IMG/VR virus record: IMGVR_UViG_3300025759_000164 | Span: 1 to 46,111 of that record | DNA: 46,111 bases | Reading direction: 5' to 3' (one strand) | Source of the DNA: a virus | Part shown: positions 1 to 45,567 of the stretch, piece by piece | How positions within the stretch are numbered: the stretch's first letter is position 1 | Layout: the number at the start of each line of letters is the position of its first letter | The notes under the pieces: generated by a model | Database searches by the model: none | Seen by the model: the letters and a program-made list of their open reading frames with translations, nothing else | What the model was told of the DNA's origin: nothing | Translations under genes and position numbers: made by a program

Positions 1-3000
1 ATTTAAAGCAGGGTATTGTTTCATACGGCCCCAAATAGACCCAGCAATACTCTTAAAATACGTATTGAAATCTTTACCTTCAATTTTAACATGTCTCTTA
101 ACTAACCACTCTTGGAAATCATTTTGAACTAAACGTCTATATCTTTCTCGTTTCTGTTTATTCCAAGTACGTCTAAATGATTCATATAATAATACCTTTT
201 CAATAAAGGCTTTATTGGATCTAATAGGCGTAAAGGCTTCGTATATATCTTTAGTTAATCCTGTAATAAATTTACTAGATACTGCGGAATCAGCTATAAC
301 ACCATTTACTACTTCCTTAGGAAAGTACGTAGGTGTTTGTAACGTCTCAATTAAATTATCTCTAGCTTGAGCATCTATAGCAGTTCTATCTGGTGTAGTA
401 TCAAAGTTAATAGCTTGCTTAATAGATAAGTACTCATTAGCCTGTTTCTTATATTCCTCAAATAGATATAAATGATAAATATCACTTATTTGTTCTGGTC
501 TTTGTGTACGTATATATGTCCAGTTAGGATACATACCATTAGGCCCCACACTAACATAATCACTATTATATGATAGTAAAGTATTTACTAAAGCATCATT
601 ATTTGATTGGCCTTTATCTAAGTAACTTTGTTTCCGTTGAATAGATGGATGATTTAAAAATCTAGTAACCTCATGCAAAGGTAATCCTACCACTACAGCT
701 AAGTACTGGTAAATAGATAACGTATCTTTAGTAATATTGACAGGCGCTAAAATAGATGCAGTTGCAGCATCAATGGTAGCCTGTACTAACTGATTAAATA
801 ATTCTGACTTTAAAATACCATCTTGAGTATATAAACTATTTAAATCATAACTATCTTTAGCACGTCTAGGTGCTGATCTAAAGATATTAGTTGGAAAGAC
901 AACATCTATCTTTTCTCTTACAATTTTCTTTTTTACCGTACGCTCTATAATATAATGATCCTTTAGTTTTAAATCTTGCTTTAAGAATAACTGAATAGCT
1001 ACTGAATCTGTAGCAGAGAATCCTGTTAATTTTTGACCTGCTAATACCATTTCCATTCTTTTCTTAAGAATGGTTTCAAAATTAGTATTTCTATGTGCAG
1101 GTGGTGAATCAGGTCTCCCAGTTCTTTTTAATGTATTTGCTAAAAAGTCAGTAGTTACAGGTGTCACTAAAGAGAAAAAACGTTCAGGTTGAGTAATAGC
1201 CTGACTAGCTACATCAATCAATCTATTAGTATGGAACTTAATAGTATCCTTATGATAATTCTTAATACGTTTACGCTCTTTAAGTAACTTACTAAATTGA
1301 TTCTTATCGTACTTAAAACTTCTATTTAGTATTGTTTGTAATTTTTTATTATCTGCTGCTTGTGCTTGAAAGAAGTTCATGACTTCTTCTTTATACTCAT
1401 GAATTTCTGCTTTCTTATTTCGCCAGTAACTTAAGGTTTCATTAAAACTTAGATCAGATGCTTTAAGTGCTTTTACTTCTGATATCAATCGCATCTTATC
1501 TTTCTTAGTAGATGCTTTACTTACCTGACTTTCTAAGTCTAATAAACGTTCAAATAATTCTTTAAATCTAGATTGTAGAATATCACGAGTAGTATTAGCC
1601 TCTTCTATTAAGGTACCATACTGATCGTAATAACTTTGAGTATTTTCAAACGCCTCTTGAATAGTATTTAACTTTTCTTTAGAGAAGTCCAGTTTATTAG
1701 ACACTGCATCTAACTGCTCATCTACATTAATCAATAATGCATCAGGATTAGTTATAACGGCTGGCTTTTGTATTAATTCACCATCCTCACCAAAACTAGG
1801 AAAATAAAAGTTCTTCTTATCAATATCAAAATCCTCCCCAGCTTTTACTACAGACTCAGTAGGTACTATAATAGTATTACCAGCAGACACAGGAAGAAAT
1901 TCTTTTATTACATATGCATCCATTAAATTAATACCTGACGTAGGAATTCTATACCCAAAAATAGTAAGAGCCCTTTTATCAATACTTCCTTCTTTAATTA
2001 ACTGATTTAATGCTAATCTAAGTTGCTCTTGAGTAGGCTTTCCATATAAATCCTTCGCTCTCTTTTTCACATCCTTACGTTTAAGTAAGGTCTTAAACGT
2101 ACCTTGCATACCTATTTTAGTTTCTGCATAGGTAACCTTTCCATCCTGATACTCATAGAATTTTAAATCTGCTGATCCATAGCTAGTTTTAAGAATCAAT
2201 GCATTCCCGGGTAACTTAATACGTATTAATCTCTTCTTTATATACCCTGCTAGAATTTCAGACAACGTTTGAGACATGCCTGTATAATCAAAATTCACAT
2301 CTCCTTTCAAACCCAATAGAAACTCTACTTGAGCATCAGTTATTTCTTCATTCTTACTCCTACGTTTTAGTTCCTCTATTAAAACGCCCTTTATACTTTC
2401 TTTATCATTAACTATATACTTATCTCCTGACTTAGTAACATTAAGCTGCTGTAATAATCTTTCTTCTTCTACCTGTCTTATATCATTTAAAACTTTAAGA
2501 TACTCTTCAAATAATCTTTTTGTTCTAGGTGAATGCCATCGTTTTTCACTATCCTGAGTATCAGAAAATAATAACTTCACAAACTGTGTAGCCAGTAAGT
2601 TTTCTTTCTTTACTTTATGATTACTTTTTAATTGTTCTTTCAGGTACGGTAGGAATATGTTAAATTCTCTACCTTGTAGATCATTAAAATCTTCCCCCAT
2701 ACTCATGGCCCCTTCTTTAGCTATGGCCCCTTTCATTGCAGATTCAGTGGTTAATATTTGAGTATTGTTTCTATACATCTCAAACATAACCTTCTCCATA
2801 GGTGTACCTAATACTTCAGAAGGCGCTAAAGGAGCAAAAGAGGACTTAAGAAATACTATAGGATTATACTCCTTATATTCTTTAACATTTCCAAAGTACT
2901 GCCATTTCTCTAACTGCCAATTAGCTTGAGGTTTGTTACTTAGTATTACATGCTCTTCTTGTGTAATTTTATTCTCCTGTAATAAGGTATCCCATCTATG

Positions 3001-6000
3001 CTCTAGAAACAGATCTCGTGTTCTACCTATATCTCCAAATTCGGCTTCATCTTCTTCTGACAATACTGCACCATCTAACCTAGATAACTCATCAATTCTA
3101 TTATTAGCTAATGCTTGTAGATAAGTAGTTTCATAACTATACAAAGCATCTAAACCTTGAGTTTTCCATAAGTCTTTAGATCGCAACATAGTTTTCACTA
3201 AATCTAAAGTTATCCAAGATTGTCCATCAGTAGTATTTATTTTTTGTCTATAGGCTTCAATACCTGCTAGTAAATTATCTTTGACTATAGTATATGCTTC
3301 CTCTGATAATCCTTGTTCTTTTAAAAATAAATCTATAGAAGTGTCTATATCTTGCTTAAAAGCTTCAAAGGTTTCGTCATTATATTTATCGTTTCTATCT
3401 GCCATAGTAGTTACGGATACTTCCATACTACCTTTATGATCTCCAAATACATTAGCCATATCAGGAGTCAATGTTTCATACATATCTATACTGGTAGGAT
3501 TACCTGTACCTGTAGATACTGCTCCTTTTGCTCGCTTAAAGAATTTACCAAACCAGTTCCCATCGCCATAAAACATTAAATTAGAATAGGTTTGATGTAA
3601 TTTATAATTCAATAACAAAGAGTTCATAGATATACCTTTACCTATATCTCCCTCATATCCTTTAATAGCACTCTTGCCACTTTCTATAGATTTTCTTAAT
3701 TCAGTCGCTACTAATTTTTCAACCCCTTGCCACAATACTTGTAAATCTGCATCTGCATTTTTGATTAACTTAGCCTGTGTTTCTAATGGTAGAAAGCCAA
3801 AGATTTGAAAAGGTAAATAATCACCCGGTATAGGGTCATTAGATAACTGTTGCTTAACTATTTCTATTCTACCTTCTAGATTAGGTACACCTAATGCCTG
3901 TTGTTTTTCTAAACTATTTAACGTTCTAATAAGATTATTATACTTCTTAGTCTTCATATTACCAATAGCACCAAAAGGCTTATTTGGTAAAGCCATAATA
4001 GAACGAAGTTTTAAAATTTCTCCTTCAAATAACTCCTTATAACGAGGCATTATTTGGTCTATCGCAGATTGTTCTTGTAATAAGTTATAAATATAAGGAG
4101 TCTTATTAGGCTTATTATTACTCACAAATCTAAAGCCCCATGCAGAACTTCCTGTTTCAGTTCTTTGAAATTCAAATGTCTGCATCCTCTTCCAAAAGAT
4201 AGCCTGTTGATTAATGTACTTATAGTTAGTGATATCAGATGTAGATTCATTCTCGTCTTTCTTATACCCTTCTAAGTTAAATATCTCTATCTGAATTTCA
4301 CCTGATAACAACTTCTCTCGTAAAGACGCTGGAAATTTAACATCAGTAATATTACCTAATAATCGCTCTACTATTTGACCTAATGCTGAGTCTAAAAATT
4401 CTTCTGCCCCTAACTTCTCTCTAAATTCATTCAGAAGGTTTCTTTGGAGTAATGCAGTATTAGGTAATGAATACACATTAATTAAATCCCCTTTTGCGTT
4501 CCGTGTCATAATGGAACGTCTGTATGGAGAATATTCAGCTTCTAAAGTCTCTAGTAATGCATAATAACCCGTTCCTTTAAACAGTGCTGTAGCACTGTCT
4601 ATAGAATCTGTACCTCCAAAGTCTTTAAACCTATTTAGAATACCAGAAGTATTAGGCAATCGTTCAATAGCTTTTTGAATCTGTGCCTTCAATACTGGAT
4701 CTCCATTAATAGCTTTTAAAGTAGTAGGAGATAAAACAATACCAAATGCTTTAGCTACAGTATATGCTTCTTGTAAGGTTGGGGCTTTTTCTCTGCCTTT
4801 TCCTACAGGTGTATATAAAGCTATTACTTGTTTCTTTCTAGCATCATTTAATTGTTCTCCTACAAAATTATCATCATAATTCTCTTTAAAATTAGAATTC
4901 CATTTAGCTAAAATCTTAGGTTTATTTTCTCCACTTTCTGTATACACATTTTCATTACCATCTTGACTAACAGCCTTTAATACTTTTAACTCAGTATTCT
5001 GCATCATAGAATAAAACGACATAGCTAAGTCACTATATGGATTATTCTTAAAGTCCATAAATTTATAAAAGGCTCCAAACATAGGATTAGCATATCTACT
5101 CCTACCATCTTTTCCTCGTATTTTTCTAGCTAAAAATTGAAGCTTTCTTTGTATTTCTTCTACTGATGCAACTCCTGAAATCTCTCCATATATTTCTTGA
5201 ATGACTTCATTCAAAGGCATTAACTGTGGAAGTCCTGTCTTAGTATTCCTAACTATATTCTTAGAGTAATCAATCTTAGGTAATAGCCTAAAGACTTGTC
5301 TAAGTCTACTTGATAGTAACTCTTGTATTCTTGTTGCAGTACCTCTTTCTTTTTCATACGCAGTCCCTTCTTCCTTCTTCTCTATATCTTCTAAGTCTAG
5401 TTCAGTACTATCTTCCTCTGTAAATCTAAATTGAGAATCAGAGTCATTAAACCATTCCTCAATGTTTATATCAAATTTAAACTTCTTAGTTTTATCTAAC
5501 CAGTTTTTAAAACGTACTTTAGTATTTATATCATATACCTTACCTAATTCAGTAAAAGATACTCCACTATCTTTATGTGCAATAAATAAAGTAAAGAGAT
5601 AATCTAAACTATCTCTAACATCAGCTTTAGTTAAATCCTCAGGTAGTTTAGTATATGAATATAATCCTCCTAAATCATCATCACTATCTAAGTCAAAATC
5701 TTTCTTCTCTATCAATCTTACATTATGAGCTACTAATAATGAATAATAATCACTATCAATACCTAAGATTTTATTGACAACATCTAATATAGCATCTACG
5801 AAAATATTAAATAGATTTTGATCTACTTTAAAATTAGTACTTTTTAATTCTGCTATTAATTCAGGATAAGTAGTACCACGAGCAATTAACTCATTTAACA
5901 TCTGCCCTTCTGTAGGTTGATTAAATATATCATCCCATATAGCTTTGTTCTTGGAATTCTTTGTCTTTTCCTTTATAGTCTTAGCTATGGCTCTTAGATG

Positions 6001-7857
6001 TTGTATTTCAGGGCCATCTTCTTTTAATTCTTCATTTATCTTATGACTTACTAATGCATGTATCTTTTCTTCCAATAACACATAAGGACGCCCTTCTCGT
6101 GCATCCATATGAATAACATTATCTCTATACCAATTTACACCATAGCCAGATGCAGTAGTAGGTGCAATTTCTCCAAAGTCATTTAAATGTGCTTTATTTA
6201 ATTCTTCTATGCTAGTATAATAACGTACTTCTACACCTAATGATTCAAATGCAGTATTAACAGTAGTTTCAAAATTATTTAATGCTACTGTTTTTATATC
6301 AAAGATTTGAGGCGTAGATAGATATGCATACTTATTTACAGCTTTATAGGTAGATTGAACACCTTCCTGTGTTTGCATTTGTGTAGGCAAATACCGTGGA
6401 TAAAAATCTAAACCTACATAATCAATTAAAGGATTATCTAGCCCTACACCTACTGTCTCTAATAGGTAGGTATTTAATAATGTTTTAGGTATACCTGATT
6501 CTCTAAGTAAATAATCACTAGCTTCTCTAATAGTTACTGTCCCTTCTCCTGCAAATCTATTGGATAAGGTAATAGAATAGTTCTTAAATATAACAGTATT
6601 AAAACGATCTCTAAGTCTCGACAATGTTTCAGGAGATACCTTACTGCCTTCTGCAATATAAAACTTAGTCTTCTCTAATGTAAATCTAAGTGCAAATTTA
6701 CCATCCTTATATCTTATACCAAACTCGTCTCTAGATGGTTTATTACCTAATACAAATTGTAGTACTGGTAATATTTCTGGATTAAAAGTACCATCCTCTA
6801 AAGTAAAGTTATCAAATATGAAATCTAATTGAGTATTTGTAAATTTCTTAGGAATCATTTGTACGTCTACAGTCACAAACTTTCCATCTATTTTCTCTTC
6901 CATTTGTACCATAGTCTCTCCTGTAGGTAATACTTCTACCCCAGGAAGAAATTTAGCATGAGAAAAATGCTCACTAGGTATTGGCTTTTGATCTGCATTA
7001 TATTTTCCACCTACTCCTTTACTTATTTCTTCTATTTGATATACTGCATACTTATTAGACTCTTTTACTAACTTCTTAGTAGATTGTACCTCATTGAATT
7101 CTTGAATAAAAAGTTCTTTTACCACTGCTTCTTCTTTCCCACTCTCCTCTGCACGTATTGTTATTCGTTTTTCATGCGCACGTTTGCCATGAGCAGTATT
7201 ACTATGTTTAACAGCATCATGACTATACTCTAAACTTATAGGGAAAGGTCTATTATCCCATTTAGCAAAATCAGGTACATGAGATAGAATGTCTTCTAAG
7301 GTCATACCGTCTTTTACTTCAGACGCAGGAATAGCTACTAATATAGTATGATATTCTTTTGGCTTATACCCCTCTGGATAAAAGTCTGGAGAATCTGGAA
7401 TATTGACTAATACATAAGAAGCGTCTAAATTCTTAAGTACTTCTTCTCTAGTTTTAGTTTTTAAATCATTCTTTATGATATCATTGCCATCTGTACTTCT
7501 GGTTGAAGTCTTACGTCCACTCTTATACGCAATTATTTCATTACCATCCTCTTTTATGGGCTGTATATCTTCTGGCTTAATAGGATCTATTTGAGTAGGC
7601 AGTGTCCAAATCCCATCAAATTCAGTTAACTCTGTACCTGTATCTTCTTGAGATAGTACTAAAGACATTAGTTGGCTTTGTCCATCTACATCTTTTAATC
7701 CAAGATTTAACGATACCTCTAAATTATCCAACTTATATACTAAGTCAGAAGTATTAAAGGTTTCAATAAAATCTTGAACATTATCAATTAATCCATTAGG
7801 ATCTAATGTCTTTGCAAAGCTATCTAAAATAGGATTTGTAAATTTTATTTTGCACAT
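1..7857 (-). CDS. Giant virion RNA polymerase protein, crAss-like (partial, runs off left edge)
   Basis: I translated the minus strand from the ATG at 7857 and found 2619 codons without a stop, so the C-terminus lies beyond the window. The DFDID motif at residues 2009-2013 (1819-1833) is the DFDxD metal-binding site of crAss-like virion RNA polymerases. It is preceded near residue 1970 by RIPTSG, matching the RAPT segment before NADFDGD in cellular beta-prime. Further on, AGQKLTGFSA (about 2270-2280) and a QATIDAATASILAPVN helix (about 2357-2372) resemble trigger-loop and bridge-helix regions of this family. The family is packaged in the virion, ejected, and transcribes early genes. The first ~1400 residues are unrecognised apart from a degenerate zincin-like patch near residue 595. 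The start overlaps the upstream ORF by 13 nt and has no Shine-Dalgarno. The polymerase call is firm; the exact start is less so. Confidence 0.92.
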   Translation of the reverse strand, partial: MCKIKFTNPILDSFAKTLDPNGLIDNVQDFIETFNTSDLVYKLDNLEVSLNLGLKDVDGQSQLMSLVLSQEDTGTELTEFDGIWTLPTQIDPIKPEDIQPIKEDGNEIIAYKSGRKTSTRSTDGNDIIKNDLKTKTREEVLKNLDASYVLVNIPDSPDFYPEGYKPKEYHTILVAIPASEVKDGMTLEDILSHVPDFAKWDNRPFPISLEYSHDAVKHSNTAHGKRAHEKRITIRAEESGKEEAVVKELFIQEFNEVQSTKKLVKESNKYAVYQIEEISKGVGGKYNADQKPIPSEHFSHAKFLPGVEVLPTGETMVQMEEKIDGKFVTVDVQMIPKKFTNTQLDFIFDNFTLEDGTFNPEILPVLQFVLGNKPSRDEFGIRYKDGKFALRFTLEKTKFYIAEGSKVSPETLSRLRDRFNTVIFKNYSITLSNRFAGEGTVTIREASDYLLRESGIPKTLLNTYLLETVGVGLDNPLIDYVGLDFYPRYLPTQMQTQEGVQSTYKAVNKYAYLSTPQIFDIKTVALNNFETTVNTAFESLGVEVRYYTSIEELNKAHLNDFGEIAPTTASGYGVNWYRDNVIHMDAREGRPYVLLEEKIHALVSHKINEELKEDGPEIQHLRAIAKTIKEKTKNSKNKAIWDDIFNQPTEGQMLNELIARGTTYPELIAELKSTNFKVDQNLFNIFVDAILDVVNKILGIDSDYYSLLVAHNVRLIEKKDFDLDSDDDLGGLYSYTKLPEDLTKADVRDSLDYLFTLFIAHKDSGVSFTELGKVYDINTKVRFKNWLDKTKKFKFDINIEEWFNDSDSQFRFTEEDSTELDLEDIEKKEEGTAYEKERGTATRIQELLSSRLRQVFRLLPKIDYSKNIVRNTKTGLPQLMPLNEVIQEIYGEISGVASVEEIQRKLQFLARKIRGKDGRSRYANPMFGAFYKFMDFKNNPYSDLAMSFYSMMQNTELKVLKAVSQDGNENVYTESGENKPKILAKWNSNFKENYDDNFVGEQLNDARKKQVIALYTPVGKGREKAPTLQEAYTVAKAFGIVLSPTTLKAINGDPVLKAQIQKAIERLPNTSGILNRFKDFGGTDSIDSATALFKGTGYYALLETLEAEYSPYRRSIMTRNAKGDLINVYSLPNTALLQRNLLNEFREKLGAEEFLDSALGQIVERLLGNITDVKFPASLREKLLSGEIQIEIFNLEGYKKDENESTSDITNYKYINQQAIFWKRMQTFEFQRTETGSSAWGFRFVSNNKPNKTPYIYNLLQEQSAIDQIMPRYKELFEGEILKLRSIMALPNKPFGAIGNMKTKKYNNLIRTLNSLEKQQALGVPNLEGRIEIVKQQLSNDPIPGDYLPFQIFGFLPLETQAKLIKNADADLQVLWQGVEKLVATELRKSIESGKSAIKGYEGDIGKGISMNSLLLNYKLHQTYSNLMFYGDGNWFGKFFKRAKGAVSTGTGNPTSIDMYETLTPDMANVFGDHKGSMEVSVTTMADRNDKYNDETFEAFKQDIDTSIDLFLKEQGLSEEAYTIVKDNLLAGIEAYRQKINTTDGQSWITLDLVKTMLRSKDLWKTQGLDALYSYETTYLQALANNRIDELSRLDGAVLSEEDEAEFGDIGRTRDLFLEHRWDTLLQENKITQEEHVILSNKPQANWQLEKWQYFGNVKEYKEYNPIVFLKSSFAPLAPSEVLGTPMEKVMFEMYRNNTQILTTESAMKGAIAKEGAMSMGEDFNDLQGREFNIFLPYLKEQLKSNHKVKKENLLATQFVKLLFSDTQDSEKRWHSPRTKRLFEEYLKVLNDIRQVEEERLLQQLNVTKSGDKYIVNDKESIKGVLIEELKRRSKNEEITDAQVEFLLGLKGDVNFDYTGMSQTLSEILAGYIKKRLIRIKLPGNALILKTSYGSADLKFYEYQDGKVTYAETKIGMQGTFKTLLKRKDVKKRAKDLYGKPTQEQLRLALNQLIKEGSIDKRALTIFGYRIPTSGINLMDAYVIKEFLPVSAGNTIIVPTESVVKAGEDFDIDKKNFYFPSFGEDGELIQKPAVITNPDALLINVDEQLDAVSNKLDFSKEKLNTIQEAFENTQSYYDQYGTLIEEANTTRDILQSRFKELFERLLDLESQVSKASTKKDKMRLISEVKALKASDLSFNETLSYWRNKKAEIHEYKEEVMNFFQAQAADNKKLQTILNRSFKYDKNQFSKLLKERKRIKNYHKDTIKFHTNRLIDVASQAITQPERFFSLVTPVTTDFLANTLKRTGRPDSPPAHRNTNFETILKKRMEMVLAGQKLTGFSATDSVAIQLFLKQDLKLKDHYIIERTVKKKIVREKIDVVFPTNIFRSAPRRAKDSYDLNSLYTQDGILKSELFNQLVQATIDAATASILAPVNITKDTLSIYQYLAVVVGLPLHEVTRFLNHPSIQRKQSYLDKGQSNNDALVNTLLSYNSDYVSVGPNGMYPNWTYIRTQRPEQISDIYHLYLFEEYKKQANEYLSIKQAINFDTTPDRTAIDAQARDNLIETLQTPTYFPKEVVNGVIADSAVSSKFITGLTKDIYEAFTPIRSNKAFIEKVLLYESFRRTWNKQKRERYRRLVQNDFQEWLVKRHVKIEGKDFNTYFKSIAGSIWGRMKQYPALN

Positions 7858-8234
7858 AGTATCAATGTATAATCAAAATTGTCTTCACCATCAAATACTG
7901 TTCGTATGAATAGATTATTGGTAGTGGTTACTATATTATAAAGTTTACCCTTATACTTATTACTTCTAGTCTTTGGGATTTCTAGACAAATATCTGGCTG
8001 CCACAAACAATCTTCAGGGTATAATATTTTACCTTGTAGAAAATGTTTACTTTTGGAATAAGGTAACATCCCATCTAAATAGTAAGAGTTGTATTCTGTA
8101 ACTATTGTTTCTACTATTTTATTCTTTTTAACTCCTAAACAAGATTTAATAAACCTTAAATTTTTGATAGGCACCCATCCGCCTGGTGTATACACCTCTG
8201 TATTTTCTGATACCCAAGTTCTATTCTCTAGCAT
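7845..8234 (-). CDS. Orphan Hint (intein/hedgehog-like) domain protein, degenerate
   Basis: A 129-residue ORF. Its N-terminus (SENTEVYTPGGWVPIKNL, about residues 9-26) matches Hint block A, where a sequence such as Cys-x-x-x-x-T-x-V-x-T-x-x-G-W-x-x-I is usual. The C-terminal part (GKLYNIVTTTNNLFIRT) resembles block F, and the ORF ends ILCAK. The position where the nucleophilic Cys is expected is Trp (W7), so self-splicing by the usual chemistry looks impossible. No endonuclease insert is visible. The ORF overlaps the upstream gene by 7 nt (ATGCTAG) and the polymerase gene by 13 nt, so it sits between two virion genes. It could be a decayed intein, a fixed Hint-fold structural domain, or an unrelated beta-rich protein. 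The ORF looks real; the Hint assignment is from motif resemblance only. Confidence 0.6.
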   Translation of the reverse strand: MLENRTWVSENTEVYTPGGWVPIKNLRFIKSCLGVKKNKIVETIVTEYNSYYLDGMLPYSKSKHFLQGKILYPEDCLWQPDICLEIPKTRSNKYKGKLYNIVTTTNNLFIRTVFDGEDNFDYTLILCAK

Positions 8235-35580: not shown

Positions 35581-38172
35581 TTATAAAACTTTTGTTCTTT
35601 TGTTCCTAGCTATTATCTCTTTTTCCCTTAATTCTAGCTCTTTATCCTTTTGTTGAGCTGCTTTTAATTTTAATTGTCTATCTAATAAAAGACGTTCTTT
35701 ACTAGTCTCAATCCCTGCTTTAGTCTGTGCATCTTTACTCTTAGCTAAACTTTCTTTATACTCAAATTCTCTGTTCTTATCTTTTAAAGCTTCTGATTGT
35801 GATCTTAATTTTTCTATTTGTGCTACTATCTCATCTACCTCATCATTAGCATATCCTAACGCTACAATACCAGCTTTGTCTAATTCTGTTTCTCTATCTT
35901 TAGCATTTTCAGATGCTTCAAATTGTAAAGCTTTCTCTTGAGCTTCTCTAGCTGCTTGTAAACTTTCTTCATGTTTCTTCATATCTAACTGCTGCTGTTT
36001 TTCTAATTCTTCTTTCTTCTCTTCATGCAGTTTCTTTAAAACTCCCATCAATTCAGGTGTAGAAGTACTAGTTTGTATTATACCTAGTTCATACGCATCT
36101 GCGCCTAAAGTATTTGTTTGAAGGGTATATTGTTTAATACGTTCTAGTGTATCTATATCAGATAATGATGATTCTATAAAGATATCTAATTGATGTAATA
36201 AAAAGCCTTCCGTAGCAGTTGAAAATATGTGTCTAGTACCATCACTGGTTAAATACGCTACTTGACTAGTTGGATTTTGACTTTCAATATATTGGGCAGT
36301 CTGTAACATACCTGCTCTTAAACGTCTCAAAACTTGATGCAATCTAGTAAATAAATATTGTACTTGATTAGATGAACGCTGCATACCTTGAATAACAGAG
36401 GTAGCTGTTTGCTTAGGTGATATATCCCCAAATAAATATTCAGGGGTCATTCCTATAATCTGGAAGCATTCATTCTTAACAATAGACGCTAATTTAGATT
36501 TCTCTAAAATATCTGCTGTTCTATTTAAATCTACTACTTGACCAATACCTCCTGCCATTTGCATAGCATTTTGTCCCATATTACTCATAGACAAATCTAA
36601 AGGTGCTAATGAAGTATCCCTACCAGTAAGAGCCCATTTTAAGATATTATTCTTACCCCATGATTCACCCATAGATTCACTTGGGATAGCTAATTGATTG
36701 AAGGCAAAAAATCGTCCTACTTCTGTTGCTAATAATTGTGCGTTTCTATTCCAAATCCAATTATAAAATATCTGCCAGGATGCACATTTAGATACTAAAC
36801 TTTGTGATTCATTATATCTATTAGATATAGAGCCTCCATATACAGGAATTAAAACGCCATATCTATATTTAGGATCTGTATACTGAATATCATGTTTCTG
36901 TAACTCTATCCAAATAGACTCTCCATCAGGCGTAGAGGTAGAATAATTTTCATTACTTGTTTCTATATCTAATTTAATACCTCTCCATAATTCATTATAG
37001 TAAAACCATTCTACATGCTCCCCTTCAATAAGGTTATCTAGGTGTTTCTTTCCGTCATACTTAGGAAGAAATGTAGGGACAAAAGTTTCATCAACAATAG
37101 TTTTAAATTCTTCACCTCTACTCTTATACGTTAAGTATCCTGCCTTTCTAGGTAATAGAAAATAAATAGTAGTTTCTCTAAATAAATCTTGACTTATATC
37201 ATCATAACGTCTATCACCTCGTTCTAAACTCTTAAAGGTAGTCCAGTTTTGAATAGAATCTTTATCTTGATTCCTGTTTCCAGTCAGATTATCATACATA
37301 CCATTTACAGTAAAGCCATTAGCATAATACTTTGATAACCATGTTTCCAAATGAAGAATTTGATCCTCACTTAATTTATCTGCATATTTATTTAAGATCG
37401 ACGCTATATTTAACGCCCCAAATTTACCTACCATTAAACTTTCTGAATAACAATCTAAATCAGTACTCTTTAAAGAAAATACATCTTTTTCATTCCATCG
37501 TTCTGGAAAATAGTCTCCATTATGGTAGTTACAATGCACTACAGGATCCTCAGTAATAATACATTGATCTAAAATACCACGTTCAATATCTTTCATATCA
37601 AACTTCATATCCTCTTTCTTCATAGTATGTATAGCCCACTTCTCAATTTCAGTCCTATATTCTAGCTTATACATTCTTTTTATTTCCTCACTATTCTTAA
37701 ACGCTTCTATTTGATCTTCATCAGGATTAGGATTCTCTGCTAAAAAAGCTTTCTCTGCTTGTCTTATTAAATTATCTCGTAAATCCGCATCCATACGTTC
37801 TATAACCTGATTAGTATTTTCAGGATTTACAGCCCTAGAACTATATTTAATATATTTTTTATCATACTCTCCTAAAATTGCATTTCTAAATACAGGAATA
37901 ATAGGATAAAAATTCAATCCCACATCATCAAGATTAGCATCCTGATAATTAAACTCTAATTCCTTAGGGACTGATTCTTTTATATAATCTTCCTTATTAA
38001 TCTTACCATGAGCAAGATTATGCAACTTTGTATATTTTGTACTCTTTGCTGATGTTTGTTCAAACCCATGTGATTCATAATACTCAAATATTGCCTTTAC
38101 TGCATCACTAGCTGTGCCATCTTTATTAAATTTTTCCGATTGTTTTAATATAAATTTTACATCACTTTTCAT
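35581..38172 (-). CDS. Portal protein, crAss-like
   Basis: An 863-residue protein directly after TerL with a 1-nt overlap. The central region carries portal-like features: QIIGMTPEYLFGDISPKQTATSVIQ, split here as the GMTPEYLFG motif followed by SVIQGMQRSSNQVQYLF, typical of the wing-to-stem transition. The last ~160 residues are a long Lys/Glu/Gln coiled coil, consistent with the barrel extension of podovirus-like portals. It would form the dodecameric DNA-entry ring. A 62-nt gap without a clear promoter separates it from the acidic assembly gene. Confident from size, motif and neighbours. Confidence 0.85.
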   Translation of the reverse strand: MKSDVKFILKQSEKFNKDGTASDAVKAIFEYYESHGFEQTSAKSTKYTKLHNLAHGKINKEDYIKESVPKELEFNYQDANLDDVGLNFYPIIPVFRNAILGEYDKKYIKYSSRAVNPENTNQVIERMDADLRDNLIRQAEKAFLAENPNPDEDQIEAFKNSEEIKRMYKLEYRTEIEKWAIHTMKKEDMKFDMKDIERGILDQCIITEDPVVHCNYHNGDYFPERWNEKDVFSLKSTDLDCYSESLMVGKFGALNIASILNKYADKLSEDQILHLETWLSKYYANGFTVNGMYDNLTGNRNQDKDSIQNWTTFKSLERGDRRYDDISQDLFRETTIYFLLPRKAGYLTYKSRGEEFKTIVDETFVPTFLPKYDGKKHLDNLIEGEHVEWFYYNELWRGIKLDIETSNENYSTSTPDGESIWIELQKHDIQYTDPKYRYGVLIPVYGGSISNRYNESQSLVSKCASWQIFYNWIWNRNAQLLATEVGRFFAFNQLAIPSESMGESWGKNNILKWALTGRDTSLAPLDLSMSNMGQNAMQMAGGIGQVVDLNRTADILEKSKLASIVKNECFQIIGMTPEYLFGDISPKQTATSVIQGMQRSSNQVQYLFTRLHQVLRRLRAGMLQTAQYIESQNPTSQVAYLTSDGTRHIFSTATEGFLLHQLDIFIESSLSDIDTLERIKQYTLQTNTLGADAYELGIIQTSTSTPELMGVLKKLHEEKKEELEKQQQLDMKKHEESLQAAREAQEKALQFEASENAKDRETELDKAGIVALGYANDEVDEIVAQIEKLRSQSEALKDKNREFEYKESLAKSKDAQTKAGIETSKERLLLDRQLKLKAAQQKDKELELREKEIIARNKRTKVL

Positions 38173-40289
38173 TAGAATCCTAATTTTACATTATGAAAGC
38201 CTCTATTTAGTAAAGAACTTTTTGCGAGTTCTTCTCTATAATTTACAACTTTTTTGTTATCTTCTCTAATTTTAGACTTAACTATTATGCCTCGGTTAGT
38301 ATTAGACTTAGATGCAAAAATGGATAAACCATATGAAATTAATCTATCACAGTTAAATTTAGGATGAGGATTAAAGTCCAACATCTCTCTTAAAACCATC
38401 TCGTCTTTTATTCTTGTAACCCCAAATATCGGCACTTCAGTACCATCCTCTTTAAATTCATAGCCTATAATCTCCCTACAATATTCTACTAGTATATTAA
38501 ATAGATCCTTCTTAAATTCAGTTGTAGTTGTAATACCATAATCAGAAGTATCTGTAGAAGCTCTAACTACCATATCTTTAATTAAAGGCATCTGATTCTT
38601 TTTCATCATATACCCCGTTTTCTTTCTGCCTATCATCCATTGTATAAAGTTTCTATTATTATTCTCTATACATGCTCTAGCATTATACCACTCAATTAAA
38701 TCTAGTGTTATTTGATATGTTTCATAAGGATCCTCACAACGTCCTGTATACCAAGCTACTAATTTATCTTGATCATATTCTCCATCAATCTCATGAGACG
38801 CTTTATAAATATGAATAGACTGTAGAGATACCGATGAAGTAGTTTTAATAGGCGTTACAGTATCCACTCCTGCATAATATAAACCAAAAGGAGGATTAGA
38901 TAATGGAGGTTCTACTACACATACGGCACCATGCGTTATTGTCCTACGCTTTACAGGAAAATCTTTTACTACAGGATATTTACTTCCTAACTTATGAAAT
39001 ACTTTTATTTCATTACGATGTAAAGTAACTGCATTGGGCTCATAGTTTTGTGTTAACCATTCATAATGAGGTTCAATAAGTTCTGTTGGAAATATATTCT
39101 CTAATCGTGTTTTGAACATATCCTCTAATGTTTGAGGATACTGGGCCTTAAAAATCTGATAATCAGCAAAGGATTTTAACTTCTCCTTTTGAGCCTGTTC
39201 TTCTAGTGCTATCTTAGCTTCTTCAATTAAGCTATTTCCAAACTCATCTTTACAACTACCATATGAATAATATGCAGGTACAAATATACCTACTTTTTGA
39301 TGTGGTTTATTACCCCATACATTAGGTAACGCCAACATATTATAAGCTTCAGGATTATAAATAATACTTTTTAATTGTTGACTCTCAGATACATTACCTG
39401 CTGCACCCCCTACATGTACACAACCTGTAACTATATTTCCATCCATTAAGGCAGGTGTTAAAAGACCTAGTACTTCACCTAAGTTTTTACTAATTCCTGC
39501 TTCATCTATAAAAGCCTCTGATGTAGCTCCTGATACTATTTGAGAGGCTTTGTTCTTTGTATTTACAGTTTTAAGTGTAGAGAAGTTTCCTAAGTAAGAC
39601 TTATCAGGCATCTGTAAACGTTGCTGCCAATATCCTTTTCCAGAAGGATCTAAGTTTCTATGCCACCCGGTATTTGCATTTAAGAAATCTCTATATCCCT
39701 CTAATACTTGCCATCCTGATGTCAAATATTCATCATCAGACGCAGAAAATTTTCCCTTAAATTTATGCTCAAACCAGAATCGTTTTAATAATTTAGATAA
39801 CAGTTTTAAAGAAAATCCAAACTGACGTACCTTAGCTGTAACTGTAAATTCTTTTTGTAACTCCGCCTTTTCTATTAACTGAAAAAACCAGATATCCGTA
39901 TCTCGAATTTCTGGTTGCATAGTAATACCGCCCTTAAACGTAATTTCAGCAAAATTCAAATACCAATAAGTATCTCCTGTAATATAATATTCATCATCTA
40001 TTAAAAGCCCTCCATATATGAGTGCCTTTTGAGTATCCCAGTATATCTTATAATCTCTAGAACCTGGTACTCTATCACAGAAGTAACCATTATTTTGAAA
40101 ATCCCTAGCTTCTTTGTTTGCCCTAGAAATTCTCTCATCTAAATTCATTTCTCCTGGTAACCTATATACCCTATCAATAAGTGCTAGTCTTTCTTCAGGT
40201 GTAATAGATTCTTTAGTAAGTATTTTACTCTTACTATCCCATTTAAAAATATTTGATTTAAGGTCTTGGACATTTGCTCTTCTTGCCAT
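38172..40289 (-). CDS. terL: Terminase large subunit
   Basis: A 705-residue packaging ATPase-nuclease. The Walker A region is KVRQFGFSLK (about residues 153-163), the K-x-R-Q-x-G-x-S variant of crAss-like and related terminases. Walker B is EAFIDEAG (about 258-265). The coupling motif region CVHVGGAAG follows. The C-terminal nuclease begins at YYAGVDTVTP with its first catalytic Asp, and further acidic residues appear in DLIEWYNARACIENNNRN. The start at 40289 is forced: an in-frame TAA lies four codons upstream. It overlaps the portal gene by 1 nt. No intein or intron interrupts it. Confidence 0.93.
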   Translation of the reverse strand: MARRANVQDLKSNIFKWDSKSKILTKESITPEERLALIDRVYRLPGEMNLDERISRANKEARDFQNNGYFCDRVPGSRDYKIYWDTQKALIYGGLLIDDEYYITGDTYWYLNFAEITFKGGITMQPEIRDTDIWFFQLIEKAELQKEFTVTAKVRQFGFSLKLLSKLLKRFWFEHKFKGKFSASDDEYLTSGWQVLEGYRDFLNANTGWHRNLDPSGKGYWQQRLQMPDKSYLGNFSTLKTVNTKNKASQIVSGATSEAFIDEAGISKNLGEVLGLLTPALMDGNIVTGCVHVGGAAGNVSESQQLKSIIYNPEAYNMLALPNVWGNKPHQKVGIFVPAYYSYGSCKDEFGNSLIEEAKIALEEQAQKEKLKSFADYQIFKAQYPQTLEDMFKTRLENIFPTELIEPHYEWLTQNYEPNAVTLHRNEIKVFHKLGSKYPVVKDFPVKRRTITHGAVCVVEPPLSNPPFGLYYAGVDTVTPIKTTSSVSLQSIHIYKASHEIDGEYDQDKLVAWYTGRCEDPYETYQITLDLIEWYNARACIENNNRNFIQWMIGRKKTGYMMKKNQMPLIKDMVVRASTDTSDYGITTTTEFKKDLFNILVEYCREIIGYEFKEDGTEVPIFGVTRIKDEMVLREMLDFNPHPKFNCDRLISYGLSIFASKSNTNRGIIVKSKIREDNKKVVNYREELAKSSLLNRGFHNVKLGF

Positions 40290-40411: not shown

Positions 40412-40901
40412 ATGCTAATTTTGTATTACCTCTACCTTTACGTTCAGCCTCTTTAGCTTTTTCTGCACTATCAAAACTGCTTAGTATCTTATCTCCTTTC
40501 TCAAATAACTTTATAACCTTATCAAAATTACCATCTTGATTATCATCATCCAAGGGTGTATTTTTTAAATAAGCAGCTAACCTATCTAACATAACCTTTT
40601 GGCCCTCATAGTAACGTAACTTAGGGGTAGAATAAATATCTGTCACTTTTATTATCGCTCTTACTATTTCAACATCATCAGGCTTATAATCTCCTTTATG
40701 ATCTTTCTTTACCTCCTCTTGTTTCTTATCCTCTTCATAATTTCTATAAGGAGATTCAGGATGTGCCATGTAATATACATAGTTAATCCCTGGAATTCCA
40801 TATTTAGTATATACTTCTTTTAGTTCAGGTATATTTATAACATGAGGATTTAATACCACCTTATCATTGACAAGATCAAAAAAGTGATCAGACTGTGCCA
40901 T
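40398..40901 (-). CDS. Conserved-type protein upstream of terL, unknown
   Basis: A 167-residue charged protein. N-terminal INIPELKEVYTKYGIPGINY and YYMAHPESPYRN segments are distinctive, followed by a Lys/Glu-rich linker (EEDKKQEEVKKDHKGDY) and a helical C-terminal half ending in a basic stretch. Its position shortly before terL invites comparison with a small terminase subunit, but I see no helix-turn-helix and make no such claim. It overlaps the downstream coiled-coil ORF by 14 nt and the upstream gene by 14 nt. Confidence 0.65.
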   Translation of the reverse strand: MAQSDHFFDLVNDKVVLNPHVINIPELKEVYTKYGIPGINYVYYMAHPESPYRNYEEDKKQEEVKKDHKGDYKPDDVEIVRAIIKVTDIYSTPKLRYYEGQKVMLDRLAAYLKNTPLDDDNQDGNFDKVIKLFEKGDKILSSFDSAEKAKEAERKGRGNTKLAYDQI

Positions 40902-41181
40902 ATCTTAATTTTAAAAGTTTATCTAATGCTAATATACCATACTCTTCAATAGGGATATGAGTAGTTTTAATTGCTATACCTCCTATATCAAAGTACTGTC
41001 CCTCATATTCAAAAATAGCATGATCTATATTGTATAAAATCTTTCCTTTAGGATATTGATGTTGTAAAAGTAATGCAAACCTAATGCAAGACCCTTGTGT
41101 ACAAATCTGTTCAGCATTAGGAAAGCACTCTTTTATTAATTCTATAAATCGTAGAATTTCAATATGATTCACTTCCAACAT
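40888..41181 (-). CDS. Small protein with possible Cys-His-Asp hydrolase triad
   Basis: A 97-residue protein with the order GSCIRFALLL (C32), DHAIFEYEGQYFDI (H54 and D65). A Cys at a helix start, then a His leading a beta-strand, then Asp after the next strand is the layout of papain/NlpC-like hydrolases, here in a very small form. I recall similar short proteins in Bacteroidota phages and elements with no established function. It overlaps both neighbours slightly. The ORF is likely real; the enzymatic idea is tentative. Confidence 0.6.
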   Translation of the reverse strand: MLEVNHIEILRFIELIKECFPNAEQICTQGSCIRFALLLQHQYPKGKILYNIDHAIFEYEGQYFDIGGIAIKTTHIPIEEYGILALDKLLKLRYGTV

Positions 41182-41516
41182 TACTGCTGATATGTAGTAA
41201 TTACATTACGTTTACTTCGATTCTTACTACGCTTCTCTAAACGTAATAATGCTGTCTCTAATGAATCTACTGCTAATAGTGTATCACGAGTTGATAAAAT
41301 ACCCTGATTTACACTCATTAAATGGTCAATACAAAGTTCTATCAAATTCTCAACTATTATACCCTTTTGTTTTGATTCATCATTCTCTTCATTATTTTTA
41401 GATCCCTTTACTATTTTCAATGGAATCTCTCCAATACTAACAAGTCCCTCTGATGTAATATCATATACAGGGACTTTATAATCGTGACTCTTAACTTTTT
41501 TAATAGCTTGCTTCAT
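41181..41516 (-). CDS. Candidate Acb2/Tad1-type hairpin protein (anti-defence)
   Basis: A 111-residue protein. After a ~50-residue N-terminal extension, residues 52-111 form two helices (VENLIELCIDHLMSVNQG and RDTLLAVDSLETALLRLEKR) followed by a KNRSKRNV tail. This helical hairpin with an R-x-x-L-x-A-x-x-x-L-E-x-A-L second helix and the E/N-K-R-T/S-x-x-R-x-K-R end resembles the Acb2/Tad1 hairpin domain. Those phage proteins sequester cyclic nucleotide or ADP-ribose signals of CBASS and Thoeris. The assignment is from pattern memory. It could also be a structural helper with the same fold. Confidence 0.5.
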   Translation of the reverse strand: MKQAIKKVKSHDYKVPVYDITSEGLVSIGEIPLKIVKGSKNNEENDESKQKGIIVENLIELCIDHLMSVNQGILSTRDTLLAVDSLETALLRLEKRSKNRSKRNVITTYQQ

Positions 41517-41523
41517 TGTTTAT

Positions 41524-42390
41524 TTAAATTAATTGCGAACGTTTATACTTAAGTATAGTCCTAGCTTCTTCTTCTAAAAAAGGTAGTTCTATAGGTATAA
41601 CCTCAGTTACAATCCTAACTTTATTTATCTCTTCATCAGTGTCTATTACAAAATGATTTGTAACATCCTCCTCTTTAACCCATTCAGTCTTAACTTGATC
41701 TATAATAAGTTCTTCAGGTGGAAACCCAATATCAGATAACATTACACCATACAAAGACAGTTGTACAGCATACTCCCAGTAGGAAGAATGTTTAAGATGC
41801 TTCAAAGGTGATTTGAAAGTAGGAGCTACTTTTTTACGTAATTGAGGCTTATAATAAGCTTTTACATCAGGTACTAAGTCTTTATTTACTGTCTTATAAT
41901 CTCGAACCTTAGAGCTGACTTCTTTAAGAACAGTCTTATCAGCTTGTCCTGCTAATCTACTAGCATGGTCTCTAAGTATAGGCTCTAAGTAAGTAGTATT
42001 AGGTTTCATACTTTCTGGATTAAAACTTTTAATCCCATCATACATAGGTATTAATACTGTATTAGGCATCTTTGCATCCTGAATCTCTTTCCAGTTGTGC
42101 CAATTAGACCCTCCAGTAGTAGCCCTAGTTCCAGCAGCTTTCCATATACCCCTTAATTTTTCTGGCGTAAAAGTATCCCCAAACTTAGTAATGATATCGT
42201 CTGTAGATAATCCCCACTTAGTCGCTAAATCTAGTACTACCTGTGCATTTGTTCTTTTCTTCAAATACACTTCTGACATCTTAACCCAATCTACTACAGG
42301 TACAAATTCTTTTATAACAGTAGTAACAGAGGTGTACATATCTCCATAGCTGTTCTTATAAGTATGGTCATCATCTTTATATATAATCAT
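41524..42390 (-). CDS. PD-(D/E)XK nuclease, Cas4/RecB-like
   Basis: A 288-residue protein with the nuclease core in order: H98 (GGSNWHNW), E136 (YLEPILRD), D151 (LAGQADK), D164-x-K166 (VRDYKT), then Q210 and Y214 (VQLSLYGVML). About 40 residues of basic insert (KAYYKPQLRKKVAPTFK) separate the DYK motif from the Q-x-x-x-Y helix. This family cleaves DNA with Mg ions; in phages it serves recombination, host DNA breakdown or packaging-linked processing. There is no Cys set for an Fe-S cluster as in Cas4. It sits three genes upstream of the terL region, which suggests a replication-to-packaging role. Confidence 0.85.
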   Translation of the reverse strand: MIIYKDDDHTYKNSYGDMYTSVTTVIKEFVPVVDWVKMSEVYLKKRTNAQVVLDLATKWGLSTDDIITKFGDTFTPEKLRGIWKAAGTRATTGGSNWHNWKEIQDAKMPNTVLIPMYDGIKSFNPESMKPNTTYLEPILRDHASRLAGQADKTVLKEVSSKVRDYKTVNKDLVPDVKAYYKPQLRKKVAPTFKSPLKHLKHSSYWEYAVQLSLYGVMLSDIGFPPEELIIDQVKTEWVKEEDVTNHFVIDTDEEINKVRIVTEVIPIELPFLEEEARTILKYKRSQLI

Positions 42391-42616: not shown

Positions 42617-42895
42617 TTATTTGATAGTATACTTTAAGGTAATTACATGTACTTCAGGTTGTCTAACTGATATTTTCTTTTCTCCAGACATAGACCGTCC
42701 ACTAATAGTACCTTTAATCTTAAACGCTGATTGAGGCTTTACTTTAATGTTACTCACACTAGTACATCCACAACTAGGTTTAATCTCTAGATCCAATTCC
42801 TTATCAGATATAGATTTACCAGGTACTTCAAAATGTATAACAGTAGACTTAGGAAATACTCCCAAATCTACTGTAGTGTTTTCAAACTGTAACAT
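42617..42895 (-). CDS. DUF1573-like small Ig-type protein
   Basis: A 92-residue beta-rich protein with the hallmark PSCGCTSVS segment (residues about 43-51) preceded by LDLEIK and followed by a strand pair, as in DUF1573 domains of Bacteroidota. Family members are usually exported, but here there is no signal peptide, so this copy is probably cytoplasmic or virion-associated. The function of the family is not established. It touches the upstream gene with a 1-nt overlap. Confidence 0.75.
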   Translation of the reverse strand: MLQFENTTVDLGVFPKSTVIHFEVPGKSISDKELDLEIKPSCGCTSVSNIKVKPQSAFKIKGTISGRSMSGEKKISVRQPEVHVITLKYTIK

Positions 42896-44538: not shown

Positions 44539-44765
44539 ACCGTAATATTAGTGGTTAATTTTTTAGCCTCTGATAGAATGAAATCAATATAGTCATCCTC
44601 CTTTACAGCTATAACTTTAACTTCTTCTTTCTCATAGCTCCAATCATTTAACATAGTAAAATCTTCTTGCGAAAGTTCATACATAGTACTAAATGTTAAA
44701 GTCGCAGAGTCATCAGCTTTTAATCTAGGCTGCTTTGATAATGCATCAAGCTTTAGAAATTTCAT
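44535..44765 (-). CDS. Hypothetical protein
   Basis: A 76-residue acidic protein, unrecognised. It overlaps the metalloprotease gene by 20 nt and the next gene by 4 nt, so it is translated as part of the same small-gene operon. Confidence 0.55.
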   Translation of the reverse strand: MKFLKLDALSKQPRLKADDSATLTFSTMYELSQEDFTMLNDWSYEKEEVKVIAVKEDDYIDFILSEAKKLTTNITV

Positions 44766-45567
44766 GTTTAATATTTTTAATTACTTCTTGTTCTCTACCT
44801 TCATATGATGCCCCTAAAATATTAGCAACAGCAGTATGAGTAGATTTTAATAAGTCTACAATATTTTTATCAGCATAAACCCGTTGAAGAGCTTCTTTAT
44901 ACTTATCTTTTTTAGGATAAATATTACTCCAGAATTTCCTGTCTTCCTGAGACCAATCAGTATTCACCTTAGTACTGATTCCTTCCTTATTCCATCGAGC
45001 AGGAAAGGCATAAAGCATTATACTATTTAAATCTAAATCTTCTGTAGTATCTACTTTACTTGGATCAGACTGTCTAATTATATTATTAATTATATCTTGA
45101 TCTGTCCAATGCTGTAGATCTTTCTTAATCTCTTCTAAAATAAAAGTAATACCATTAGGAAACTGATGCTCATGATTAGCACCAATCATATGCGTTAACT
45201 CATGCTTAACAGTACCTATGTCTGTAGGAGTACTAGGGTGTAACCATCCAAAATTCATTGTAGGACTACTTTTAGGTACATACTTAGCATCAGTACCCAA
45301 GTAACTCCAAGAACCCCCTCCTTCTACAAATGATATTCTAATGTCTCCATGATCTACCACATATACAAAACGTAAATTAATGAACCCCATTAATTGACTA
45401 ATACCTTGTTTAACTAAATCTATCTGTGGTTGGGTACCTCCCATAAAACTTACAGATATAGTGCGACCCTCTTGCCAATATTTAGATCTAGTGCCTATAG
45501 CTCTAGCTATCTTAGAATTATCAGGCTTTAAAGTCTTTACTGTACATTCTGAATAATCTTTTAACAT
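44746..45567 (-). CDS. Astacin-like zinc metalloprotease (metzincin)
   Basis: A 273-residue protein. The catalytic motif is HELTHMIGANHEH with H122, E123, H126 and H132. The Glu straight after the third His is the astacin-type feature. The Met-turn is SIMLYAF with M184 and Y186, about 50 residues later as expected for metzincins. The N-terminal part (ISVSFMGGTQPQIDLVKQGI) matches the usual strand-helix of this fold. There is no signal peptide or propeptide, so it would act in the infected cell or as a virion component. It is likely regulated from the leader upstream, which holds a GTTTTGTCAAAAC inverted repeat. Its substrate is unknown; capsid maturation or host-wall processing are possibilities. 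Confidence 0.88.
   Translation of the reverse strand: MLKDYSECTVKTLKPDNSKIARAIGTRSKYWQEGRTISVSFMGGTQPQIDLVKQGISQLMGFINLRFVYVVDHGDIRISFVEGGGSWSYLGTDAKYVPKSSPTMNFGWLHPSTPTDIGTVKHELTHMIGANHEHQFPNGITFILEEIKKDLQHWTDQDIINNIIRQSDPSKVDTTEDLDLNSIMLYAFPARWNKEGISTKVNTDWSQEDRKFWSNIYPKKDKYKEALQRVYADKNIVDLLKSTHTAVANILGASYEGREQEVIKNIKHEISKA

What the first reader, a model, noticed from the sequence alone, without database searches (positions are those of the whole stretch)
41181..41516. Acb2/Tad1-like hairpin protein: possible signal sponge against CBASS or Thoeris
The C-terminal 60 residues form a two-helix hairpin with the R-x-x-L-x-A-x-x-x-L-E-x-A-L and terminal K-R-S-x-x-R-x-K-R features of phage Acb2/Tad1 hairpin proteins. 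An additional ~50-residue basic N-terminal part is unusual. In an abundant gut phage group this would be a relevant anti-defence factor.
Basis: partly seen in the sequence, partly recalled or inferred. Interest (0 to 1): 0.65.

Follow-up and report, generated by a model that had tools for sequence, protein, structure and literature searches.

The report
Divergent Tad1 signal-sponge in crAss-like phage
A crAss-like phage carries a 111-residue relative of Tad1, a phage protein that soaks up bacterial alarm molecules; it belongs to a known family, but it is unusually divergent exactly where relatives are thought to grip the Thoeris alarm signal.

Summary
The ORF at 41181-41516 (-) is real and is a distant homologue of Tad1 (Thoeris anti-defence 1), not merely an Acb2/Tad1-like hairpin. 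It aligns over residues 11-108 with Clostridium botulinum prophage Tad1 (E 1e-7), matches PHROG 2428 (2e-10), and is found in the window by a Tad1 profile that excludes it (8e-10). The AlphaFold2 model (two strands, then a helical hairpin) has CbTad1 and CmTad1 as its top PDB hits. So the 'unusual' N-terminus is the normal Tad1 strand region. Two arginines nearly invariant in 92 relatives are kept (R96, R100 = CbTad1 R109, R113; by my recollection the cyclic-trinucleotide site). Positions that I recall as the gcADPR/dinucleotide pocket, plus other nearly invariant ones, are changed (F82 to V, N92 to T, W105 to R, Q53 to V). Most likely it is a late-expressed sponge, more probably anti-CBASS than anti-Thoeris, possibly packaged like phiKZ gp184 (PMC10449902). 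No ligand binding was tested. It is a new, very divergent member of a known family; Tad1 was not found in seven Crassvirales reference genomes. Modest interest.

The parts
41181..41516 (-). Tad1-family gene, 111 aa: N-terminal strand pair (residues 11-35) plus C-terminal helical hairpin (55-70, 77-102)
41184..41354 (-). C-terminal hairpin region (residues 55-111) with the conserved R96/R100/R103 set and the divergent V69, T79, R92
   Evidence: alignment with 91 relatives; hairpin rmsd 0.9-2.3 A over 51-63 residues to solved Tad1
40888..41181 (-). Downstream gene whose start overlaps the Tad1 stop (shared base 41181); YunG-like protein, 97 aa, Pfam PF24591; context only, role unknown
41524..42390 (-). 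Upstream gene, PHROG 298 exonuclease, 288 aa; the same family lies next to Tad1 and TerL on contig L018
38172..40289 (-). Terminase large subunit (PHROG 6681), downstream in the same cluster; the same TerL family follows Tad1 in Cellulophaga phage phi17:2 and contig L018

Best explanation
The gene encodes a Tad1-family sponge. Shown: homology to solved Tad1 proteins, the predicted Tad1-like fold, conservation of the family's arginine pair, loss of several nearly invariant residues, and a tight position in the packaging-gene cluster. Inferred: like CbTad1 and phiKZ gp184 it assembles into a hexamer and sequesters nucleotide second messengers without degrading them, so the effectors of abortive-infection systems are not switched on. 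Inferred with less confidence: because the R109/R113 equivalents are kept and the F82/N92 equivalents are lost, its main ligands are cyclic trinucleotides (CBASS, and any type III CRISPR output sharing them), with weak or altered binding of gcADPR and cyclic dinucleotides. Speculative: its position among late packaging genes suggests late expression and possible carriage in the virion for injection, as reported for phiKZ gp184.
For: phmmer against PDB: only Tad1 entries, E 1e-7, residues 11-108. PHROG 2428 E 2.4e-10; Cellulophaga phi17:2 gp072 and L018, members of the same PHROG, sit in comparable TerL clusters. Profile without the window protein finds it, E 8e-10. AlphaFold2 helices above pLDDT 90; Foldseek top 20 all Tad1; the eight best VIA-align rows are all Tad1. 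R96 and R100 match columns that are R in 91 of 92 sequences, while V69, T79, R92, V36 replace F (85/92), N (87/92), W (87/92), Q (89/92). Tad1 binds gcADPR and dinucleotides in one pocket and trinucleotides at a separate trimer interface (PMC12043709). Solved CbTad1-cA3 and CmTad1-cAAA/cAAG complexes exist. phiKZ gp184 was shown to be injected (PMC10449902), and phiKZ Tad1 is described as injected and blocking CBASS and Thoeris (PMC13282480).
Against: Identity to characterised Tad1 is only about 28-36%, and the window protein has the longest end branch of 92, so function may have drifted. Loss of nearly invariant residues could equally mean loss of all ligand binding. Residue-to-ligand assignments (F82/N92 gcADPR; R109/R113 trinucleotides) are from memory; the primary papers were not held. 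Whole-chain superposition is mediocre (TM 0.45-0.55, rmsd 5.6-6.6 A for CbTad1) apart from the hairpin. No hexamer could be modelled. Host and its defence systems are unknown.
Confidence: 0.7

Rival explanations
1. It is a Tad1 homologue that still binds gcADPR or another TIR-made cADPR isomer as its main ligand, with a rebuilt pocket, and so acts mainly against a Thoeris variant of its Bacteroidota-type host.
For: The founding Tad1 function is anti-Thoeris and homologues are reported to keep CTN and gcADPR binding (PMC12043709). Related phages also vary at the N92 position (S in phi17:2, G in L018), which would fit adaptation to a shared different ligand.
Against: Loss of F82, N92, W105 and Q53 equivalents, nearly invariant elsewhere. 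No known alternative ligand.
Confidence: 0.15
2. The Tad1 fold has been reused as a virion or packaging component in this lineage and no longer binds signals; its position beside TerL reflects that role.
For: Tad1 relatives lie close to TerL in several unrelated contigs. Some are annotated as structural proteins, and a solved phage chain named gp184 matches the family. Conserved residues are lost.
Against: phiKZ gp184 is both injected and credited with sponge activity, so virion carriage does not exclude function (PMC13282480). The arginine pair is retained. In other phages the neighbours are recombination or endonuclease-subunit genes, not packaging genes.
Confidence: 0.1
3. It is an Acb2 protein (CBASS-only sponge) that has gained an unrelated N-terminal extension.
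For: Acb2 and Tad1 share a Pfam hairpin domain (PF24729), and the hairpin is the best-conserved part here.
Against: The PDB match covers the Tad1 N-terminal region too; strands predicted at 11-21 and 24-35; no Acb2 chain appears in the sequence or fold searches.
Confidence: 0.04

Closest known systems
CbTad1, Clostridium botulinum prophage Tad1 (PDB 7uav, 7uaw, 8smd, 8kbe, 8kbf)
   Same: Aligns over residues 11-108; same order of strand region then helical hairpin; R109/R113 equivalents, HxY motif and R90 kept
   Different: About 33% identical; F82, N92, W105, Q53 replaced; N-terminus shorter, lacking the GG upstream of HxY; four-residue insertion after the R57-K58 equivalents
Cellulophaga phage phi17:2 gp072 (hypothetical protein)
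   Same: PHROG 2428, 31% identical over the length, also upstream of a PHROG 6681 TerL, in a Bacteroidota phage
   Different: Keeps the W and the GT near the C-terminus; S instead of N92; different small genes between it and TerL; not placed in Crassvirales in its record
phiKZ gp184 (phiKZ Tad1)
   Same: Tad1 C-terminal region with both arginines; missed by Pfam like the window protein
   Different: 230 aa with a long extra N-terminal region; keeps N92 and has Y at the F82 position; known injected virion protein (PMC10449902)
SBSphiJ7 Tad1 (founding member, UPI13470.1)
   Same: Family member by alignment
   Different: 142 aa, canonical F, N and W at the changed positions, no packaging gene beside it in the stretch read
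Acb2 (anti-CBASS 2)
   Same: Shares the hairpin domain in Pfam and a hexameric sponge principle
   Different: Short N-terminal helix instead of the strand region (PMC12043709); no sequence match found here

Membership tests
Tad1 family | Significant sequence homology over most of the length to a characterised Tad1 | tested here: met
   phmmer E 1e-7, residues 11-108 of 111; profile excluding the window, E 8e-10 over the C-terminal half; PHROG 2428 E 2.4e-10 over 26-110
Tad1 family | Two long C-terminal helices forming the conserved hairpin | tested here: met
   Helices 55-70 and 77-102, pLDDT above 90 for most; rmsd 0.9-2.3 A over 51-63 residues to CbTad1/CmTad1
Tad1 family | N-terminal antiparallel beta-sheet (beta1-beta4) | tested here: inconclusive
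   Two long strands predicted (11-21, 24-35), pLDDT about 60-86; four strands not resolved; whole-chain TM 0.45-0.55
Tad1 family | Conserved C-terminal arginine pair (R109/R113 in CbTad1) | tested here: met
   R96 and R100; columns are R in 91 of 92 sequences. Link to trinucleotide binding is from memory
Tad1 family | Hexamer of three dimers | not testable with these tools
   Only monomer prediction was available
Tad1 family | Binds gcADPR and/or cyclic oligonucleotides without degrading them | not testable with these tools
   Needs biochemistry
Tad1 with CbTad1-type gcADPR/dinucleotide pocket (a subset, not the family) | F82 and N92 (recalled from the CbTad1 work), with W105 and Q53 nearly invariant | tested here: not met
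   V69, T79, R92 and V36 at these positions; phi17:2 has S and L018 has G at N92, so this is not required for family membership
Pfam PF24729 Acb2_Tad1_hairpin | Score above the curated cut-off | tested here: not met
   No hit for the window; phiKZ gp184 and the OLIVR5 homologue also miss, phi17:2 falls below the cut-off, so the model is insensitive
Acb2 | Short N-terminal helix plus two helices, no N-terminal strand region | tested here: not met
   Strands predicted in the N-terminus

The most novel reading that the evidence does not exclude
A Tad1 variant in a crAss-like phage has given up the gcADPR/dinucleotide pocket and kept only the central trinucleotide sites, or rebuilt the pocket for a different TIR- or CD-NTase-made signal, and is delivered from the virion.
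Probability: 0.25. Interest if true: 0.5.

Novelty: new member of a known kind. Interest (0 to 1): 0.33.

Why it matters
Tad1 proteins block two major abortive-infection systems, yet the characterised ones named here come from Bacillus, Clostridium and Pseudomonas phages or prophages. A Tad1 in a crAss-like phage extends the family to a major group of Bacteroidota phages. Its changed positions make a direct test of which residues set ligand choice. It also shows that the Pfam model misses such members.

Tried and rejected
Pfam and NCBIfam gave nothing useful for the window protein; the Pfam Tad1 model also misses Tad1 from phiKZ, so this was not taken as negative evidence. The weak Pfam hit to Rad4 BHD_2 (E 0.28) was dismissed. 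BFVD fold search gave only weak hits, though the best named ones were Acb2/Tad1 hairpin proteins and the Klebsiella N1M2 homologue. VIA-align rows 9 and below (LINE-1 ORF2p, IcmR, ribosomal proteins) are generic helical hairpins; Acb2 was not listed there. A tree could not place the protein: very long branch, biased composition. Profile search of seven Crassvirales reference genomes and four IMG/VR TerL relatives found no Tad1 (that profile includes the window, phi17:2 and L018, so its hits in their contigs are by construction). Homology of the 167-aa gene before TerL with phi17:2 gp070 was not supported. An alternative genetic code for the ORF-poor left end was considered and rejected: a single standard-code ORF runs off the window's end. 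The primary Tad1 structure papers were not held.

Full report
WHAT IS THERE. The ORF at 41181-41516 on the minus strand encodes 111 aa with an ATG start. It sits in a tight minus-strand cluster: PHROG 298 exonuclease (41524-42390), this gene, a YunG-like gene (PF24591, E 6e-12; 40888-41181, its ATG overlapping this gene's stop), a 167-aa gene, then TerL (38172-40289) and portal (35581-38172). A second IMG/VR contig (L001), 99.85% identical over 9.9 kb, keeps the ORF with one synonymous difference.

THE PHAGE. The record is a 46-kb virus fragment. TerL matches PHROG 6681 (6e-68) and portal PHROG 6547 (6e-48). The best TerL relatives among phage records are Crassvirales: Azobacteroides phage ProJPt-Bp1 and cr1_1, at 26-27% identity. 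The window's left end is filled by one standard-code ORF of at least 2619 aa containing DFDID, as in crAss-like giant RNA polymerases (my reading; not tested with a profile). So the phage is crAss-like, but far from named species; its host and habitat are not known here.

FAMILY. phmmer against all PDB chains returns only Tad1 entries (E about 1e-7), aligned from residue 11 to 108. PHROG 2428 matches at 2.4e-10, and Cellulophaga phi17:2 gp072 belongs to the same PHROG at 7e-32. To avoid circularity, a profile of six other Tad1 relatives (A4, without the window, phi17:2 or CbTad1) was run on the window: E 8.2e-10 at this place and nowhere else; hhalign gave 94.5% probability, E 8e-8. AlphaFold2 on a 49-row alignment gave strands 11-21 and 24-35 and helices 55-70 and 77-102 (mean pLDDT 75, helices mostly above 90). 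The twenty best Foldseek PDB hits are all Tad1 chains, with whole-chain TM of about 0.45-0.55 on the query. In the hairpin alone the fit is 0.9-2.3 A over 51-63 residues. Helical hairpins are common, so the fold match is supporting evidence; the sequence matches carry the argument. No Acb2 chain appeared in these searches, and the N-terminal strands fit Tad1, not Acb2, whose protomer has a short N-terminal helix (PMC12043709).

RESIDUES. 92 Tad1-family proteins (including CbTad1, SBSphiJ7 Tad1, phiKZ gp184 and 80 IMG/VR relatives from a scan that confirmed 374) were aligned. The window keeps R96 and R100 (CbTad1 R109 and R113; R in 91 of 92), R77 (R90), H11, Y13 and G52. It replaces F82 by V69 (F in 85), N92 by T79 (N in 87), W105 by R92 (W in 87), Q53 by V36 (Q in 89) and G120 by T107 (G in 88). 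The review PMC12043709 states that Tad1 binds gcADPR and cyclic dinucleotides in one set of pockets and trinucleotides at separate trimer interfaces; solved complexes with gcADPR, cADPR, cA3, cAAA and cAAG exist. That F82/N92 belong to the first site and R109/R113 to the second is my recollection of the CbTad1 papers, which were not held; it was not verified. If right, the protein is better suited to trinucleotides (CBASS) than to gcADPR (Thoeris).

CONTEXT. Tad1 and PHROG 6681 TerL lie near each other in the window, phi17:2 (about 0.7 kb) and contig L018 (2.8 kb); L018 also has a PHROG 298 exonuclease homologous to the window's (24% identity, E 2e-8). In other relatives the gene after Tad1 is sometimes a terminase (up to four of 44 neighbours for one TerL family), but also an endolysin, a phosphatase or others, so the linkage is a tendency, not a rule. 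phiKZ gp184 was identified as an injected virion protein (PMC10449902) and a later review describes Tad1 as injected by phiKZ to block CBASS and Thoeris (PMC13282480). Virion carriage is therefore a reasonable, untested idea here.

SPREAD. The window protein finds few relatives by simple tblastn: Aeromonas D3/D6/D9/LAh10 phages at 32% identity, and none among crAss-like records. A profile search of seven Crassvirales reference genomes found no Tad1. So Tad1 looks sporadic in this order, on a small sample. The protein has the longest branch in the tree and cannot be placed.

VERDICT. Observation confirmed; interpretation right in kind, and sharpened to Tad1. A new, very divergent member of a known family. 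Function as a sponge is inferred; ligand preference is a testable guess.

Noticed in passing
window 1-7857 (-): A single ORF of at least 2619 aa runs off the window end and contains DFDID (VKAGEDFDIDKKNF), as in giant crAss-like phage RNA polymerases. It is open in the standard code.
   Followed up: partly
window 7845-8234 (-): 129-aa ORF between the giant ORF and a 281-aa gene resembles a Hint/intein-like domain by eye (TEVYTPGGWVPIKNL ... KLYNIVTTTNN). Not tested with profiles.
   Followed up: no
window 44746-45567 (-): 273-aa protein with the zinc-protease signature HELTHMIGANHE (HExxHxxGxxHE, astacin-like metzincin) close to the packaging genes. No PHROG match.
   Followed up: no
window 42617-42895 (-), compared with L012 2282-2902: DUF1573-like protein upstream of Tad1 (below the Pfam cut-off); phi17:2 gp073, directly upstream of its Tad1, has a similar GSCGC segment by eye, which may be further synteny.
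   Followed up: partly
L019 891-1211 and 1221-2774: A Tad1-family gene ends about 10 bases before a terminase large subunit of a different family (PHROG 38), showing Tad1-TerL adjacency in an unrelated phage.
   Followed up: partly
Pfam PF24729 against L013 (phiKZ gp184) and L014 (OLIVR5): The Pfam Acb2/Tad1 hairpin model misses phiKZ gp184 and the OLIVR5 homologue, so Tad1 counts based on it are too low.
   Followed up: yes
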